Shown: positions 5,789 to 29,558 of the stretch, piece by piece
Numbering within the stretch: position 1 is the first letter of the stretch
Layout of the letters: the number at the start of each line of letters is the position of its first letter
From: Acidobacteriota bacterium
GTDB lineage: Bacteria > Acidobacteriota > Vicinamibacteria > Fen-336
Assembly (NCBI GenBank): GCA_022340545.1
Contig: JAJDNV010000037.1
Coordinates: forward strand, 1-36,212
DNA length: 36,212 bases
Direction of reading: 5' to 3'
Made by a program: the position numbers and the translations under genes
The notes under the pieces: generated by a model
Databases searched by the model: none
The model's input: only the letters and a program-made list of their open reading frames with translations
What the model was told of the DNA's origin: nothing

Positions 5789-5834
5789 GGCGCTCAGCCG
5801 TCGGCCTGCAGCTCGGTGGCCACGATCATTCATT

Positions 5835-5871
5835 GACCCCCCACCCTATCCCTCCCCACGTAGGGGGAGGG
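5835..5871. repeat. 37-bp GC-rich palindromic repeat, copy a
   Basis: GACCCCCCACCCTATCCCTCCCCACGTAGGGGGAGGG; matches 5965-6001 at 35/37 positions; internal palindrome CCCTCCCC-ACGT-AGGGGGAGGG. Confidence 0.85.
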
Positions 5872-5894
5872 AAAGGCTTGAGATAGGCCACGGA

Positions 5895-5929
5895 CGCCGA
5901 CGTGTCCCCAAGGAAGGGACACGCCGGCG
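5895..5929. repeat. Inverted repeat (14-bp arms, 13 matching) between the two 37-bp repeats
   Basis: CGCCGACGTGTCCC (5895-5908) / GGGACACGCCGGCG (5916-5929). Confidence 0.75.
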
Positions 5930-5964
5930 GAACTGGGCCTGGTGCTCAACTGCGCCTGCAAATG

Positions 5965-6001
5965 GACCCCCCTCCCTAGCCCTCCCCACGTAGGGGGAGG
6001 G
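5965..6001. repeat. 37-bp GC-rich palindromic repeat, copy b
   Basis: GACCCCCCTCCCTAGCCCTCCCCACGTAGGGGGAGGG; same orientation as 5835-5871, exactly 130 bp downstream. Confidence 0.85.
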
Positions 6002-6054
6002 GCCCTCTCCACGTGGGGGGTGTAGTGCTTGGGGTTATGATCTTTGCCCGCTGA

Positions 6055-7860
6055 GTGAGAGCTGCCGAGGGGGGAGGGTTCCTGTCCGCAGTCGAACGTT
6101 TACCTGAAGACCTGGTCAATAAAATCGCGGCCGGGGAGGTCGTGGAGCGGCCGGCGTCCGTCGTCAAGGAGCTCATCGAGAACGCCATTGACGCGGGGGC
6201 GCGGAGTATCCACATCGACATCGAGGGCGGAGGGGCCGGCCTCGTCCGCGTGAGGGACGACGGCCGAGGGATGAGCCGGACGGACGCCGAGCTGGCCCTC
6301 GAGCGCCACGCCACCTCCAAGCTCCGGAAGTTGGAGGATCTGCAGGCGATGGCGACCCACGGGTTCCGGGGCGAGGCGCTTCCGTCGATCGCCGCGGTCT
6401 CCGAGCTGGTCCTGCGCACACGCGAGGACGGCACGGTCGAGGGGACCGAGATCGCGGTGAGCCACGGCCGCCGTCTCCACGTCCGCGACGCGGGACACCC
6501 GCGGGGCACCACCGTGGAGATGCGGGATCTGTTCGGGGCAGTGCCCGCCCGACGCAAGTTCCTGCGGGCCGCCTCCACCGAGGCGGGTCACGTGGCGGAG
6601 GCGGTCACACTGCTGGCTCTGGCCCGTCCGGAGACCGGGTTCTACCTCAAGTCGGGTGCGCGCCGGCTGCTGGAGGCGCCCCCCGTCGATGGCCTGGCCC
6701 CGCGCCTCTACCAGGTGTTTGGGCCGCGGCTGCTCGAGGATGTCGTGCCCGTGGAAGGAGGGGCCGACTGGGCGGTGGTTCGCGGCTTCGTCTCCCGTCC
6801 CGACCGGCCCCGGCCGTCGCGGCCGTCGCTGCGGCTCTACGTGAACCGGCGACCCGTGCGCGACCGGGCCCTGGCGAAGGCCGTCTCCGAGGCGTACCGG
6901 GGATCCGGCGGGGGCGAGCGAGGCTTCGAGGCGTTCCTGTTCGTCGAGGCGCCGCCCCACCTCGTGGACGTGAACGTCCACCCGGCCAAGACCGAGGTCC
7001 GCTTCGCGGACGCGCGCACGGTGTGGGCCGCGGTCGAGCGCGCGGTACGGGAGGCGCTGTCCGAGGGCGTGCGTGAGCTTCCCCGGGTCGAGGTCGGGCG
7101 GGACGCCGAGGACGGATCTGTGGCCGAGCGGGCCGCGGCCGCGACGCGCTCGTTCTTCGAGCACGGCTCCGCGTTGAGCGGGACGGCCCCGGCATCGGGC
7201 TGGGGCCGGCGGCCGGAAGCGCCGGACCGGGTGGCGGAGGTCTCGGCGTCGCCGGCACCGGCCGGCGCACCCCCGATCGTCCTCGGGCAGCACCGCCTCA
7301 CGTACATCGTGGCGAGCGACGGAGACGAGCTCGTTCTCGTCGACCAGCACACCGCGCACGAAAGGGTCCGCTTCGAGCGCCTCCTGGAGCGAGCCGGCCG
7401 CCACGCGGTCCAGTCGCAGGGCCTGGTGACGCCGCTGGTCCTCGAGCTCCCCCCGGAGCTGAGGCCGGTCCTGGACGCCCAGGCCGAGACGCTCGGCGAG
7501 CTCGGCTTCGACGTGGAGGCCTTCGGAGGCGGCTCGATCCGTCTGCGCGCCCTGCCTGCCGTGCTGGGACACAAGGACCCCGGACCCGCGCTGGAGGGCA
7601 TACTCCGGGACCTGGCCCAGCGCGGAGAAGCGGAGTGGGCGGTGGCGGGCACGCGAGACCGCCTGGCCGCAACCCTCGCGTGCCACTCCGCGGTTCGAGC
7701 GGGCCAGCCCCTGAACGTGGAGTCCATGTCGGCCATCGTGCGCGACCTGCTCCAGACCGCGCACCCGACGTTGTGTCCCCACGGGCGGCCGACCGTGGTG
7801 CGGATCCCCCGGGCCGAGGTCAGCCGCTGGTTCGGCCGAACCGGCTGGCGACGGCAGTAG
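6055..7860 (+). CDS. mutL: DNA mismatch repair protein MutL
   Basis: GHKL N-terminus ERLPEDLVNKIAAGEVVERPASVVKELIENAIDAGA, THGFRGEALPSIAAVSEL; C-term DQHTAHERVRFE (endonuclease-type motif DQHA-X2-E-X4-E with A to T). Exact start uncertain (GTG 6055 assumed). Confidence 0.96.
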   Translation: MRAAEGGGFLSAVERLPEDLVNKIAAGEVVERPASVVKELIENAIDAGARSIHIDIEGGGAGLVRVRDDGRGMSRTDAELALERHATSKLRKLEDLQAMATHGFRGEALPSIAAVSELVLRTREDGTVEGTEIAVSHGRRLHVRDAGHPRGTTVEMRDLFGAVPARRKFLRAASTEAGHVAEAVTLLALARPETGFYLKSGARRLLEAPPVDGLAPRLYQVFGPRLLEDVVPVEGGADWAVVRGFVSRPDRPRPSRPSLRLYVNRRPVRDRALAKAVSEAYRGSGGGERGFEAFLFVEAPPHLVDVNVHPAKTEVRFADARTVWAAVERAVREALSEGVRELPRVEVGRDAEDGSVAERAAAATRSFFEHGSALSGTAPASGWGRRPEAPDRVAEVSASPAPAGAPPIVLGQHRLTYIVASDGDELVLVDQHTAHERVRFERLLERAGRHAVQSQGLVTPLVLELPPELRPVLDAQAETLGELGFDVEAFGGGSIRLRALPAVLGHKDPGPALEGILRDLAQRGEAEWAVAGTRDRLAATLACHSAVRAGQPLNVESMSAIVRDLLQTAHPTLCPHGRPTVVRIPRAEVSRWFGRTGWRRQ

Positions 7861-7866
7861 CCTGTG

Positions 7867-7933
7867 GCTCGAACGGCTGTCTTTCGGAGGGGCTCCACCG
7901 TGGCCGTTGCCCGGTGAATCCCTCCGTTCGAGC
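7867..7933. repeat. Inverted repeat just downstream of mutL
   Basis: Perfect 10-bp arms GCTCGAACGG (7867-7876) / CCGTTCGAGC (7924-7933); overlapping hairpin CTCCGT (7922-7927) / ACGGAG (7935-7940). Confidence 0.6.
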
Positions 7934-7945
7934 TACGGAGAACCT

Positions 7946-8198
7946 CTAGTGGTACGTCACCGAAATCGTGTGGACTGCATAGGCGTGGTGGCGCGCAGGC
8001 GGCCGGGGCCCCCGACGAGGACGCAGCTGTGCTTCGAAGTTGATGCTCGAGGCGCCCGAATCGTGAACAATGGCGTACCCCAGGAGGCTGACGGGGCCTG
8101 CGGCCCCGCACGATTCGGGCACCTCGCCGCAGACGGGGTGGCCGCCGAGCGCCCAACGCTCCAGTAGAACGCACACGAGTTCGGTGACAGGACACTAG
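7946..8198 (+). repeat. CTAG-bounded palindromic element, copy 1 (long form)
   Basis: Starts CTAGTGGTACGTCACCGAAATCGTGTG, ends CACACGAGTTCGGTGACAGGACACTAG; core GGCGGCCGGGGCCCCCGACGAGGACGCAGCTGTGCTTCGAAG shared with copies 2-4; nested hairpin 8048-8126 with 18-bp arms (17 matching). Confidence 0.92.
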
Positions 8199-9061
8199 TC
8201 ACAATGGGCAAGCGCAAACTCGCGGAAGGCCGCCATCACCTTGCGCGTCACCGGCCCGGGCCGGCCGTCGGCGATCAGGCTCTCGTCCACCTGCCGGACC
8301 GGCAGGATCTCCCGCGTGGTGGAGCTAAGAAACGCCTCGTCGGCGCCGAGGAGGTCGTCCATCGTCAGCATCTCCTCCCGACTGGCCACACCGAGGGTCG
8401 GGGAGAGCTCGAGCACGATCTCCCGGGTGATGCCGCCCAGGATTCCCGCGCTGAGCGGCGGGGTACGGAGGGCTCCCTGGTTGACCACGAACACGTTGGT
8501 GCTCGCGCCCTCGGCGATGTGCCCTTCGTGGTTCAGGAGCACCGCCTCCTCCGCGCCCCGGGCCTTCGCCTCGCGCACGGCCAGGATGTTGTTCAGGAGG
8601 TTGGAGGACTTGATCACCGGATCCAGGCTCCGGGGGTGGTTGCGGCGGACGGCGACCGCGCACACGCGGATGCCCTCCTCGTACTGTCGCTCGGAGACCG
8701 GAGTCAGCTCCTTCTGTATCATGACGACGGTCGGGCCGACGACGGTGTCGAAGTCGTACGAGGAGTTGCCGACCCCGCGGCTGACGACGATGCGGACGTA
8801 GGACTCGACGTGGTCGGCCCGGGCGAGGAGGGCCCGGACCTGATCGAGGAGCTCGCCGTCCGTCGCCGGGACGGGGATGCCGAGACGGTCGGCCGATGCA
8901 CGCATCCGACGGAAGTGTCGGCCGCTCTGGAAGGGGCGCCCGTTGTAGGTGCGCAGCACCTCGTAGACGCTGTCGCCGAAGACGAAGCCGTTGTCGAGTA
9001 CCGGAACTCGCGCCTCGTGGAGGGGCACGATCTCACCGTTGACAGAGGCAAAGGATCCCAT
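8195..9061 (-). CDS. Class IV PLP-dependent aminotransferase (D-amino acid / branched-chain aminotransferase-like)
   Basis: 288 aa; VPVLDNGFVFGDSVYEVLRTYNGRPFQSGRHFRRMRASADRLGI, VIKSSNLLNNILAVREAKARGAEEAVLLNHEGHIAEGASTNVFVV. Confidence 0.92.
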   Translation of the reverse strand: MGSFASVNGEIVPLHEARVPVLDNGFVFGDSVYEVLRTYNGRPFQSGRHFRRMRASADRLGIPVPATDGELLDQVRALLARADHVESYVRIVVSRGVGNSSYDFDTVVGPTVVMIQKELTPVSERQYEEGIRVCAVAVRRNHPRSLDPVIKSSNLLNNILAVREAKARGAEEAVLLNHEGHIAEGASTNVFVVNQGALRTPPLSAGILGGITREIVLELSPTLGVASREEMLTMDDLLGADEAFLSSTTREILPVRQVDESLIADGRPGPVTRKVMAAFREFALAHCD

Positions 9062-13494: not shown

Positions 13495-14745
13495 GTGAGC
13501 GGTGCCGGGCAGGCCTTCGACATCTCTCGTGTTCTCGTCAGCGAAGAGGTCCGCCAGATCCGCCGCGAGGGCTGGACGGGCGTGCTGGCCCTGGCCCAGG
13601 GCGACATCGCGAAGGGTCTCTATTTCATGGACGGGGAGATCGTCTTCGCGGCGTCGACCGTTGAGGAGGATCGCCTCGGCGCCAACCTCTACCGGATCGG
13701 ACGGATCACGGAACCCCAGTTCCGGGCGGCGATGACCGCGGCGCAGACGCCGGGCCGACGCCTCGGGCAGGCCCTCATCGATGCCGGGGTCCTGAAGCGC
13801 GAAGAGCTGGCGGCAGCGGTGGAAGGACAGGCGGAGCGGATCGCCCTCTCGGTCCTCCGCTGGACGAGCGGGCGGCTGCAGCGGCGGGCGATGGAGCGGC
13901 CCCTCCCCGCCGACCTGATCCTCGAGCTCAAGACGGGTCGCCTGCTGCTCCTGGGGGCGCGGCTCTTCCCGAACCCGAGGCGCCTCGAGGTTGCGCTCGG
14001 GGGGCCGGGGACGCGGCTGCGCCGCGTGGCCATCCGCCCGTTCGCCTACGACCAGCTGCCCACCTCGTCTCCGGAGCGTGCGGTGCTGGCCCTCTCGGCT
14101 CGCGAGACCACCCTCGGGGACGCGCTCAGTCTGCCCCATCCCCGGGATCAGCTGCTGCGGGCGGTTTACGGGCTCGTGGCCAGTGGCATGGTCGAGACAC
14201 ACGAGGCGGCGCCCGCGGCGCCGGAAGCGCCCGAGGAGATCGAGGTCGAGATCGAGGTCGAGCCCGCGGCTGAGCCCGCGCTCGAGCCCGGGTCCGCACT
14301 CGGGGAGGTCGGGCCGGCGTTCGAGGCTGGACCCGCTGACGACGAGGTCGGGTCTGAGCCCGACGCGCCGCCGAGCCCCGACACCGGCGAGCAGCGGGCG
14401 CGCTCGCTGCTCGAACGGGGGCAGCGGCAGGCGGCGGTGGAGCTGCTGACGACCCTCGTCGAGATGTACCCCGACGCGCACGGCTGCCGGAGGCTGCTCG
14501 CGATGACGCTGGCGCAGGCGGGGTCGTTCCAGAAGGACGTCGAAAGCCACTGCCTCGCCGCCCTCGAGATGGACTCCAAGGACACGGAGCTCAGACACCG
14601 CCTGGCGACCTACTACCGCCGTGCCGGGATGACCGCGCGAGCGATGCTACAGCTACGCAAGATCCTCTCCGACGATCCCGGTCACGCCGGGGCCTGGCGG
14701 GACCTCGGCGAGCTCGAGGCCGCGGAGGGGAAGCGGGGCCGGTAG
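13495..14745 (+). CDS. PATAN/DUF4388-type protein with acidic linker and TPR-like C-terminus
   Basis: N-term REGWTGVLALAQGDIAKGLYFMDGEIVFAASTVEEDRLGANLYRIGRIT; C-term helical repeats RSLLERGQRQAAVELLTTLVEMYPDAHGCRRLLAMTLAQAG. Confidence 0.75.
   Translation: MSGAGQAFDISRVLVSEEVRQIRREGWTGVLALAQGDIAKGLYFMDGEIVFAASTVEEDRLGANLYRIGRITEPQFRAAMTAAQTPGRRLGQALIDAGVLKREELAAAVEGQAERIALSVLRWTSGRLQRRAMERPLPADLILELKTGRLLLLGARLFPNPRRLEVALGGPGTRLRRVAIRPFAYDQLPTSSPERAVLALSARETTLGDALSLPHPRDQLLRAVYGLVASGMVETHEAAPAAPEAPEEIEVEIEVEPAAEPALEPGSALGEVGPAFEAGPADDEVGSEPDAPPSPDTGEQRARSLLERGQRQAAVELLTTLVEMYPDAHGCRRLLAMTLAQAGSFQKDVESHCLAALEMDSKDTELRHRLATYYRRAGMTARAMLQLRKILSDDPGHAGAWRDLGELEAAEGKRGR
14236..14259 (+). repeat. 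In-gene tandem repeat (2 x 12 bp, GAGATCGAGGTC)
   Basis: GAGATCGAGGTC at 14236-14247 and 14248-14259, encoding EIEVEIEV in the acidic linker. Confidence 0.85.
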
Positions 14746-14915
14746 CGCGACGTCACCGAAGTCATGTCTGTAGGAAGGGCGTGGGGGCGCGCAGGCGGCC
14801 GGGGCCCCCGTCGAGGACGCAGCTGTCCTTCGAAGCTGACGCGCCCGCAGCCGGGGTGGCCGCCGAGCGCCCAGAGCTCCGGAGAATGCACATGACTTCG
14901 GTGACGGGACAGTAG
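14742..14915 (+). repeat. GTAG-bounded palindromic element, copy 2 (short form)
   Basis: GTAG...GTAG direct repeats; perfect 16-bp inverted arms GTCACCGAAGTCATGT / ACATGACTTCGGTGAC; core GCGCGCAGGCGGCCGGGGCCCCCGTCGAGGACGCAGCTGTCCTTCGAAGCTG. Confidence 0.92.
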
Positions 14916-22396: not shown

Positions 22397-22568
22397 CTAG
22401 CGTGCTGTCACCGAGTCGTTGTGTTCTCTGGAGTGTTCGGCGCTCGGCGGCCACCCCGTCTGCGGGCGCAGCAGCTTCGAAGTGCAGCTGCGTCCTCGTC
22501 GGGGGCCCCGGCCGCCTGCGCGCCACCACGCCCGCCCGGCCAACACGACCTCGGCGACGTACTGCTAG
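22397..22568 (-). repeat. CTAG-bounded palindromic element, copy 3 (short form, inverted orientation)
   Basis: CTAGCGTGCTGTCACCGAG...CTCGGCGACGTACTGCTAG; contains CTTCGAAGTGCAGCTGCGTCCTCGTCGGGGGCCCCGGCCGCCTGCGCGCC, the reverse complement of the core in copies 1 and 2. Confidence 0.92.
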
Positions 22569-28151: not shown

Positions 28152-29314
28152 GGCTCGCCTTCGTCATCCAGCGGTACGGGCTGGAGGTTGCAGGCGGGGC
28201 CGAGCTGCACTGCCGCTGGCTGGCCGAGCGCCTGGCCCAGCGTCATCACGTCGAGGTGTTTGCCACGCGGGCGCTCGACTACCTCGAGTGGCGGAATCAC
28301 TACCCCAGGGGCACCGAGGTCGTGGGCGGCATCCCGGTCCACCGCCACACCGTTCGGCGGACCCGAAACGCGCGGAAGTTCGCCTCGCTCAGCAACCTGT
28401 GCTTCCACGAGACGCACAGCCGCGAGGAGGAGGAGGCCTGGGTGCGCGAGAACGGTCCGTTCTCGCCGGAGCTCGTCCGGAAGGTGAGACGCTCGCGGAG
28501 CGACTTCGACCGGTTCCTCTTCTACTGCTACCGCTACTACCAGAGCTACCACGGCCTGCCCCCGGTGAGGGACCGGGCCATCCTCGTGCCGACGGCGGAG
28601 GAGGACCCGGCCATCCAGCTGGGTGTCTTCAAGGATCTCTTCCGCTCCCCCCGCGGCATCCTCTACCTGACCCCGGAGGAGCGGGCCCTGGTGGAGGACG
28701 CGAGCGGGAACCACGATGTCCCGAACGCGGTGATCGGGTCCGGGCTCAACCTCCCGCCGACCGACGCCGGCCATGATTTCGCGGCCCGGCACGGGCTGAC
28801 TCGCCCCTTCGTCCTTTATGTCGGACGGATCGACAAGAACAAGGGCTGCGTGAGCCTCTTCGCCTACTTCCGCAAGTTCGTCGAGGAGACCAGGGCCGAC
28901 GTCGACCTGGTTCTCGCCGGCTCCGCGGTGATCCCGATTCCCGATCACCCCCGCATCCACCACGTCGGCCGCGTCACCGAGGAGGAGAAGGTGGCGGCGC
29001 TCGGCCAGTGCCGGCTCCTGGTGATGCCGTCGCCCTACGAGAGCCTCTCCATCATCACGCTCGAGGCCTGGAAGCTGGGAACCCCGGTGCTCGCGAACGG
29101 GCGGTGCCGGGTGCTGATGGGACAGTGTCTTCGCTCGAACGGGGGGCTCTTCTACCACGGGTACGCGGAGTTCGCCGAGGGGCTGCGCCTCCTGCTGGAG
29201 AAGCCACAGCTGGCGGCCTCGCTCGGCCGGCAGGGCCGGGACTGGGTCGACACCGAGTGCGCGTGGGAGACGGTGGAAGGCCGGGTGGAGGAGCTGCTCG
29301 AGCGAACGGGCTAG
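28148..29314 (+). CDS. Glycosyltransferase family 4-like protein, paralog B
   Basis: VRLAFVIQRYGLEVAGGAELHCRWLAERLAQRHHVEVFATRALDYLEWRN; VLYVGRIDKNKGCVSLFAYF; VMPSPYESLSIITLEAWKLGTPVLANG; GTGA overlap with paralog A. Confidence 0.88.
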   Translation: MRLAFVIQRYGLEVAGGAELHCRWLAERLAQRHHVEVFATRALDYLEWRNHYPRGTEVVGGIPVHRHTVRRTRNARKFASLSNLCFHETHSREEEEAWVRENGPFSPELVRKVRRSRSDFDRFLFYCYRYYQSYHGLPPVRDRAILVPTAEEDPAIQLGVFKDLFRSPRGILYLTPEERALVEDASGNHDVPNAVIGSGLNLPPTDAGHDFAARHGLTRPFVLYVGRIDKNKGCVSLFAYFRKFVEETRADVDLVLAGSAVIPIPDHPRIHHVGRVTEEEKVAALGQCRLLVMPSPYESLSIITLEAWKLGTPVLANGRCRVLMGQCLRSNGGLFYHGYAEFAEGLRLLLEKPQLAASLGRQGRDWVDTECAWETVEGRVEELLERTG

Positions 29315-29558
29315 CCGACGTCGTGCCCCCGCACCCCTACGACTCTCGACCACGCGGAGCCCCGGGGCGGGCTCGGCGTGCACCCCGTCTGCGGCGGGGT
29401 GCTCGAATCGCGCGGAGCCGCAGGCTCCGGGTGGTGTCGCCGGACCCGCCCTTGTACGCGATTCGAGCACTCCGAAACCAACAGCCTCGAAGTTGAGCAG
29501 GGTCCTCGCCGGGGCCCCGCCCGCCGAGCCCGTCACCGCGTGGTCGTTGCCCAGCTAG
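29311..29558 (-). repeat. CTAG-bounded palindromic element, copy 4 (long form, inverted orientation)
   Basis: CTAG at 29311-29314 and 29555-29558; CACCCCGTCTGCGGCG and CGAAGTTGAGCAGGGTCCTCGCCGGGGCCCCGCCCGCC match copies 1/3; nested hairpin arms GGGGTGCTCGAATCGCG (29396-29412) / CGCGATTCGAGCACTCC (29457-29473). Confidence 0.85.

What the first reader, a model, noticed from the sequence alone, without database searches (positions are those of the whole stretch)
8048..8126. Nested hairpin module distinguishes long from short element forms
Copy 1 carries CGAGGCGCCCGAATCGTG (8048-8065) / CACGATTCGGGCACCTCG (8109-8126) around a GGGGCC-TGC-GGCCCC hairpin (8093-8107). Copy 4 has the same architecture in opposite orientation (29396-29473, inner hairpin CGGAGCC-GCA-GGCTCCG), with compensated changes (GCCCGAATCGTG vs GCTCGAATCGCG; GGGGCC/GGCCCC vs GGAGCC/GGCTCC). 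Copies 2 and 3 lack it at the same position. Paired changes that keep base pairing suggest selection on the structure or a self-contained module that inserts or excises.
Basis: seen in the sequence. Interest (0 to 1): 0.72.

Follow-up and report, generated by a model that had tools for sequence, protein, structure and literature searches.

The report
Optional hairpin inside stop-codon mobile element
The hairpin is an optional arm of a small, protein-less mobile DNA element that has spread through one genus of Acidobacteriota by inserting mostly into the stop codons of genes, and its two sides do change together to keep pairing.

Summary
The hairpin is not a free-standing module. It is an optional helix at one fixed point inside a short structured "kernel" (49 nt, gapless in 33 aligned copies), which is the heart of a dispersed palindromic element. 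The host genome has 62 kernel hits, a second species of the genus at least 25. Outside the genus there is one weak hit among 191 other class genomes; a pattern scan of about 85,000 species found it only in that second species.

The module model finds 10 copies in this genome and 1 in the sister species, all inside kernel elements, none alone. Paired changes are real: 6 of 24 pairs changed on both sides, and no shuffle of 500 reached the 13 observed cells. They reflect about two subtypes.

The element behaves like a MITE. It has inverted ends, TA duplicated within CTAG, no ORF, a star-like copy tree, and empty orthologous sites in the sister species, four precise to the CTAG. CTAG is about 11-fold depleted and at least 38% of CTAGs are TAG stops, so the element lands on stop codons and rebuilds them (28 of 37 copies). 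No partner transposase was found.

Unexplained: why one kernel and helix sit inside arms of at least four different sequences.

The parts
7946..8198 (+). Copy 1, long form; CTAG at both ends (7946-7949, 8195-8198); the right CTAG holds the in-frame TAG stop of the aminotransferase gene (8195-9061, minus)
   Evidence: empty orthologous site in G001
7956..7971 (+). left inverted repeat GTCACCGAAATCGTGT of copy 1
8173..8188 (+). right inverted repeat ACACGAGTTCGGTGAC of copy 1
8011..8045 (+). 5' part of the structured kernel of copy 1
8046..8127 (+). optional helix module (the finding): outer stem 8048-8065/8109-8126, inner hairpin 8092-8108
8128..8137 (+). 3' part of the kernel of copy 1 (CGCAGACGGG)
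14742..14915 (+). Copy 2, short form, kernel 14807-14855; the left TAG is the stop of the gene ending at 14745
22397..22568 (-). Copy 3, short form, kernel 22455-22503; CTAG at both ends; 22565-22567 is the stop codon of the M23 peptidase gene
29311..29558 (-). Copy 4, long form with different arms; both terminal CTAGs are in-frame stops of the convergent flanking genes
29394..29476 (-). optional helix module of copy 4

Best explanation
The hairpin is an optional helix in a MITE-like, non-autonomous palindromic mobile element. Shown: the element has inverted ends, carries no ORF of its own, is bounded by TA inside CTAG, and sits at sites that are empty in the sister species. Shown: most copies lie in the TAG stop codon of a flanking gene, whose stop is rebuilt at the element's end. 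Inferred: a Tc1/mariner/IS630-type transposase acting in trans inserted the element into TA of CTAG. Because CTAG is rare in this genome and largely confined to C-TAG stop codons, and because insertions elsewhere were purged, copies accumulated at gene ends. The long form has the extra helix at the junction of kernel helices P3 and P2, and the short form lacks it. Inferred: complementarity is kept because the element works, or is repaired, as a folded strand during transposition or as RNA.
For: 62 kernel hits in the genome and shared ends. Deletion derivatives that keep the ends: a 55-bp one and a 118-bp one. Empty orthologous sites in G001, precise at CTAG for copy 1 and copy 3, L003 and L012. 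The base outside the left TA varies (C15 G3 T2 A1) and outside the right TA (G18 C2 A1), while the inner G and C come with the element. 28 of 37 copies have an end TAG as the in-frame stop of a long GC3-rich ORF (with copy-4 ends corrected). CTAG 170 seen against 1943 expected in 711 kb of G001, 64 of them C-TAG stops. Context 41 convergent, 27 tandem, 0 divergent. Star-like copy tree, as after a burst. The IS630 preference for TA in CTAG is Tenzen and Ohtsubo 1991, seen here only as a title in the reference list of PMC2170065.
Against: No IS630-type DDE_3 transposase in G000 or G001, and the end sequence is not found elsewhere above background in 396 phylum genomes. The same kernel and module occur inside arms with different end sequences, which a simple MITE does not predict. 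For copy 2 the empty site is not base-precise.
Confidence: 0.72

Rival explanations
1. The kernel with its optional helix is a functional structured RNA or 3'-end regulatory element (for example an mRNA 3' stabiliser or bidirectional terminator) that was spread by transposition and is kept by selection on the fold.
For: Kernel gapless at 49 nt in 33 distinct copies from two species, with invariant unpaired stretches and a C-G to G-C swap in P3. Arms of different sequence stay complementary: own pairing -47 to -50 kcal/mol, cross-family -39.6, shuffled -37.4. Module double changes. All 68 classified copies lie downstream of at least one gene.
Against: No Rfam match. Restricted to one genus. Orientation in tandem contexts only 18 sense to 9 antisense. 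Inside the G000 family the kernel (0.925) is no more conserved than most of the flanking stems (0.85-1.0) or the inverted ends (0.93). Many orthologous sites are empty.
Confidence: 0.15
2. REP/BIME-type palindromes amplified by a tyrosine (Y1) transposase (RAYT or TIRYT).
For: 3'-end location and palindromy as in REPs (PMC3733652). TIRYTs are known in Acidobacteria (same paper), and G001 has two Y1 genes.
Against: No Y1 gene found in G000, where most copies are. The two G001 Y1 genes are flanked by GGGGTCAG repeats and no kernel. Insertion duplicates TA.
Confidence: 0.08
3. The inner hairpin is itself a mobile module that inserts into or leaves the element.
For: It is present or absent at one fixed point; long copies do not form one clade, though the tree is poorly resolved.
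Against: Never found alone in two genomes by BLAST or covariance model. No own target duplication seen at its junctions.
Confidence: 0.03
4. The paired changes arise without selection, by hairpin-templated repair (quasi-palindrome correction), and spread with subtype amplification. This concerns the cause of the covariation and is compatible with the main explanation.
For: Double changes fall into about two subtypes (copy 1 with L028; L005, L007 and L011), so there are few independent events.
Against: Arms of different sequence in several families stay complementary, which repair could also produce; the mechanism is hard to exclude.
Confidence: 0.3

Closest known systems
IS630/Tc1-mariner-derived MITEs (RUP of Streptococcus pneumoniae) and TA-flanked Correia/NEMIS of Neisseria
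   Same: 100-250 bp, no ORF of its own, paired inverted ends, TA duplication, long hairpin; Correia elements also exist in a short and a long form that differ by about 50 bp of internal sequence (PMC2229807)
   Different: GC-rich; placed largely in stop codons; a conserved multi-helix kernel shared by families with different ends; optional helix nested in the kernel; no partner IS found
BOX elements of pneumococcus
   Same: modular palindromic repeat with an optional internal module that does not disturb the outer fold (PMC3049150)
   Different: no sequence relation tested; here one optional module, never repeated, at a fixed junction
REP / BIME and CGTC-tagged REPs
   Same: palindromic, 3'-end and convergent location; CGTC stands next to the stem in many copies
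   Different: REP units are 20-40 bp with 8-9 bp stems for the CGTC type (PMC3733652); here 85-255 bp with a multi-helix kernel
SPRITE repeats of pneumococcus
   Same: strong enrichment at the 3' ends of convergent genes (PMC3049150)
   Different: SPRITE resembles a terminator with a U tract; this element has none

Membership tests
MITE (non-autonomous IS derivative) | short, no coding capacity, terminal inverted repeats | tested here: met
   ends; no gene-like ORF belongs to the element
MITE (non-autonomous IS derivative) | mobile: occupied and empty orthologous sites with a target duplication | tested here: met
   copy 1, copy 3, L003, L012 precise; TA with variable outer bases
IS630/Tc1-mariner MITE | TA duplication, CTAG preference | tested here: met
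   the CTAG preference of IS630 is known here from a cited title
IS630/Tc1-mariner MITE | partner transposase with the same ends in the genome or a relative | tested here: inconclusive
   no DDE_3 in G000 or G001, ends only in G000 above background; both genomes are fragmented assemblies that may lack multi-copy transposons, so it works like one but is not filed as a member
REP elements with RAYT/TIRYT | tyrosine transposase gene flanked by the repeat | tested here: not met
CGTC-tagged REP | 20-40 bp, 8-9 bp stem, loop 4-5 | tested here: not met
   size and fold, compared
described structured RNA family | match to an Rfam covariance model | tested here: not met
structured RNA in general | transcribed and folded in the cell | not testable with these tools
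   no transcript data

The most novel reading that the evidence does not exclude
The 49-nt kernel, with its optional helix, is a new class of functional structured RNA or single-strand DNA motif, recognised by a protein, that has been carried inside several transposable palindromes with unrelated ends in one Acidobacteriota genus.
Probability: 0.17. Interest if true: 0.7.

Novelty: new variant of a known kind. Interest (0 to 1): 0.43.

Why it matters
It gives a clear case of how a target preference (CTAG), in a high-GC genome that avoids CTAG, turns into stop-codon insertion that leaves both neighbouring genes intact, a tolerated niche for mobile DNA. The shared kernel inside different arms raises a testable question: what keeps a folded core constant while the arms and ends are replaced?

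Tried and rejected
Rfam at gathering and loose thresholds: nothing credible (the one weak hit is a snoRNA model at E 0.33). HDV-like ribozyme, suggested by TCCTCGC on the reverse strand: considered by eye only, no P3 partner. Module alone: none. Autonomous partner: DDE_3, Y1 and an end-pattern search of 396 phylum genomes gave none; L219 looked like a lone end but is a 55-bp deletion derivative. Shared occupancy of orthologous sites as proof of ancient insertion: rejected, because loci of G001 were fetched for carrying the kernel, and about five shared sites among 62 is roughly what a limited set of CTAG stops would give by chance (my estimate). Tree of long and short copies: unresolved, star-like. 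Viral contigs: no match to the kernel pattern. A first loose pattern for kernel copies gave 794 mostly chance matches and was dropped.

Full report
Observation. Copies 2 and 3 lack it at the same point.

What it belongs to. The window is contig C204 of a 5.04-Mb, 406-contig draft genome. A blast-type search with the right part of copy 1 found 40 matches. Thirty-two loci were fetched and aligned. The main family is about 174 bp in its short form: CTAGTGGTACGTCACCGAAGTCGTGT...ACACGACTTCGGTGACAGGACACTAG. The whole element is one long hairpin.

The kernel. Copies with different arms share a gapless 49-nt kernel, CCCG-N-CGAGGA-CSC-W-GCT-NNACTTCGA-AGC-NNNN-GSG-CCCGCAG-N-CGGG, with three short helices and invariant unpaired stretches. 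Its covariance model finds 62 hits in this genome and at least 25 in G001, the same genus, plus one weak hit in a search of 193 class genomes. Viral contigs gave none.

Arm families. At least four arm types surround the kernel. Arms pair with their own partners at -47 to -50 kcal/mol, across families at -39.6, and shuffled at -37.4. The arms therefore differ in sequence but stay complementary.

The module. Eleven copies were aligned: 24 pairs, 97% of cells paired, 6 pairs changed on both sides, 13 double-changed cells, 0 of 500 shuffles as high, and every slid version far lower. The changes fall into about two subtypes (copy 1 with L028; L005 with L007 and L011), so the number of independent events is small. 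A covariance model of the module finds 10 places in G000 and 1 in G001, all inside kernel elements at the same junction (contexts). It does not occur alone. Copy 4 and its G001 counterpart occupy the orthologous site and are both long forms with different arms.

Mobility. The window is syntenic with G001:C138. In G001 the sites of copies 1, 2 and 3 are empty. For copy 1, MutL and the aminotransferase end on one shared CTAG (GGAG-CTAG-TCGCAGTGGGC), and in the window the right end of the element reads CTAG-TCACAATGGGC. For copy 3 the G001 site is GCG-CTAG-CCGAACG, the peptidase stop. L003 and L012 give two more precise sites. Outside the element the base before the left TA and after the right TA varies, inside it is constant, so TA is the likely duplicated target.

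Stop codons. In 28 of 37 examined copies a terminal TAG is the in-frame stop of a long, GC3-rich ORF, in about seven on both sides (with the ends of copy 4 corrected). CTAG is depleted about 11-fold in 711 kb of G001 (170 against 1943 expected) and at least 38% of CTAGs are stop codons; the window shows the same, 12 against 101. Of 68 copies with both neighbours classified, 41 lie between convergent genes, 27 between tandem genes and none between divergent genes. Target preference plus purging of harmful insertions explains the placement without any special recognition of stop codons (inference).

Partner enzyme. No DDE_3 transposase in G000 or G001, no Y1 transposase in G000, and the two in G001 are flanked by other repeats. 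The end sequence occurs 29 times in G000 and at background elsewhere in 396 phylum genomes. Metagenome assemblies often lose multi-copy transposons (general knowledge), so absence is not proof.

Known relatives. Correia elements come in a short and a long form differing by an internal sequence, and RUP is linked to IS630-Spn1 (PMC2229807). BOX elements are modular (PMC3049150). IS630-family elements duplicate TA, and a preference of IS630 for TA in CTAG is cited in PMC2170065. REPs favour 3' ends and convergent sites (PMC3733652). No paper describing this family was found in four text searches.

Verdict. A new MITE-like family, a variant of a known kind with two unusual traits: a conserved multi-helix kernel shared across families with different ends, and an optional helix nested in it.

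Noticed in passing
window 7861-7945: A second palindrome (GCTCGAAC...GTTCGAGC) lies between the MutL stop and copy 1; it is absent from the G001 ortholog and not repeated in the loci held.
   Followed up: partly
window 5826-6060; L027, L147, L149, L010, L137: A second dispersed repeat (ATTGACCCCCCACCCTATCCC...) recurs in the genome and is found inside or next to kernel elements.
   Followed up: partly
L166 and L167 (G001); L065, L130, L154: GGGGTCAGGTC-type repeats in G001 flank its two Y1 transposase genes and fit the GGGGWSAS ends of tyrosine transposase elements (TIRYTs) described in PMC3733652.
   Followed up: partly
L219 (G000:C85 near 9866): A 55-bp deletion derivative keeps both CTAG ends and little else.
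   Followed up: yes
L025, L029, L070, L140: A variant short form replaces the 3' kernel end with CGAAYTGGCGGTG, another optional small stem.
   Followed up: no
L059 (G001:C159): Two kernel units stand in tandem 115 bp apart.
   Followed up: no
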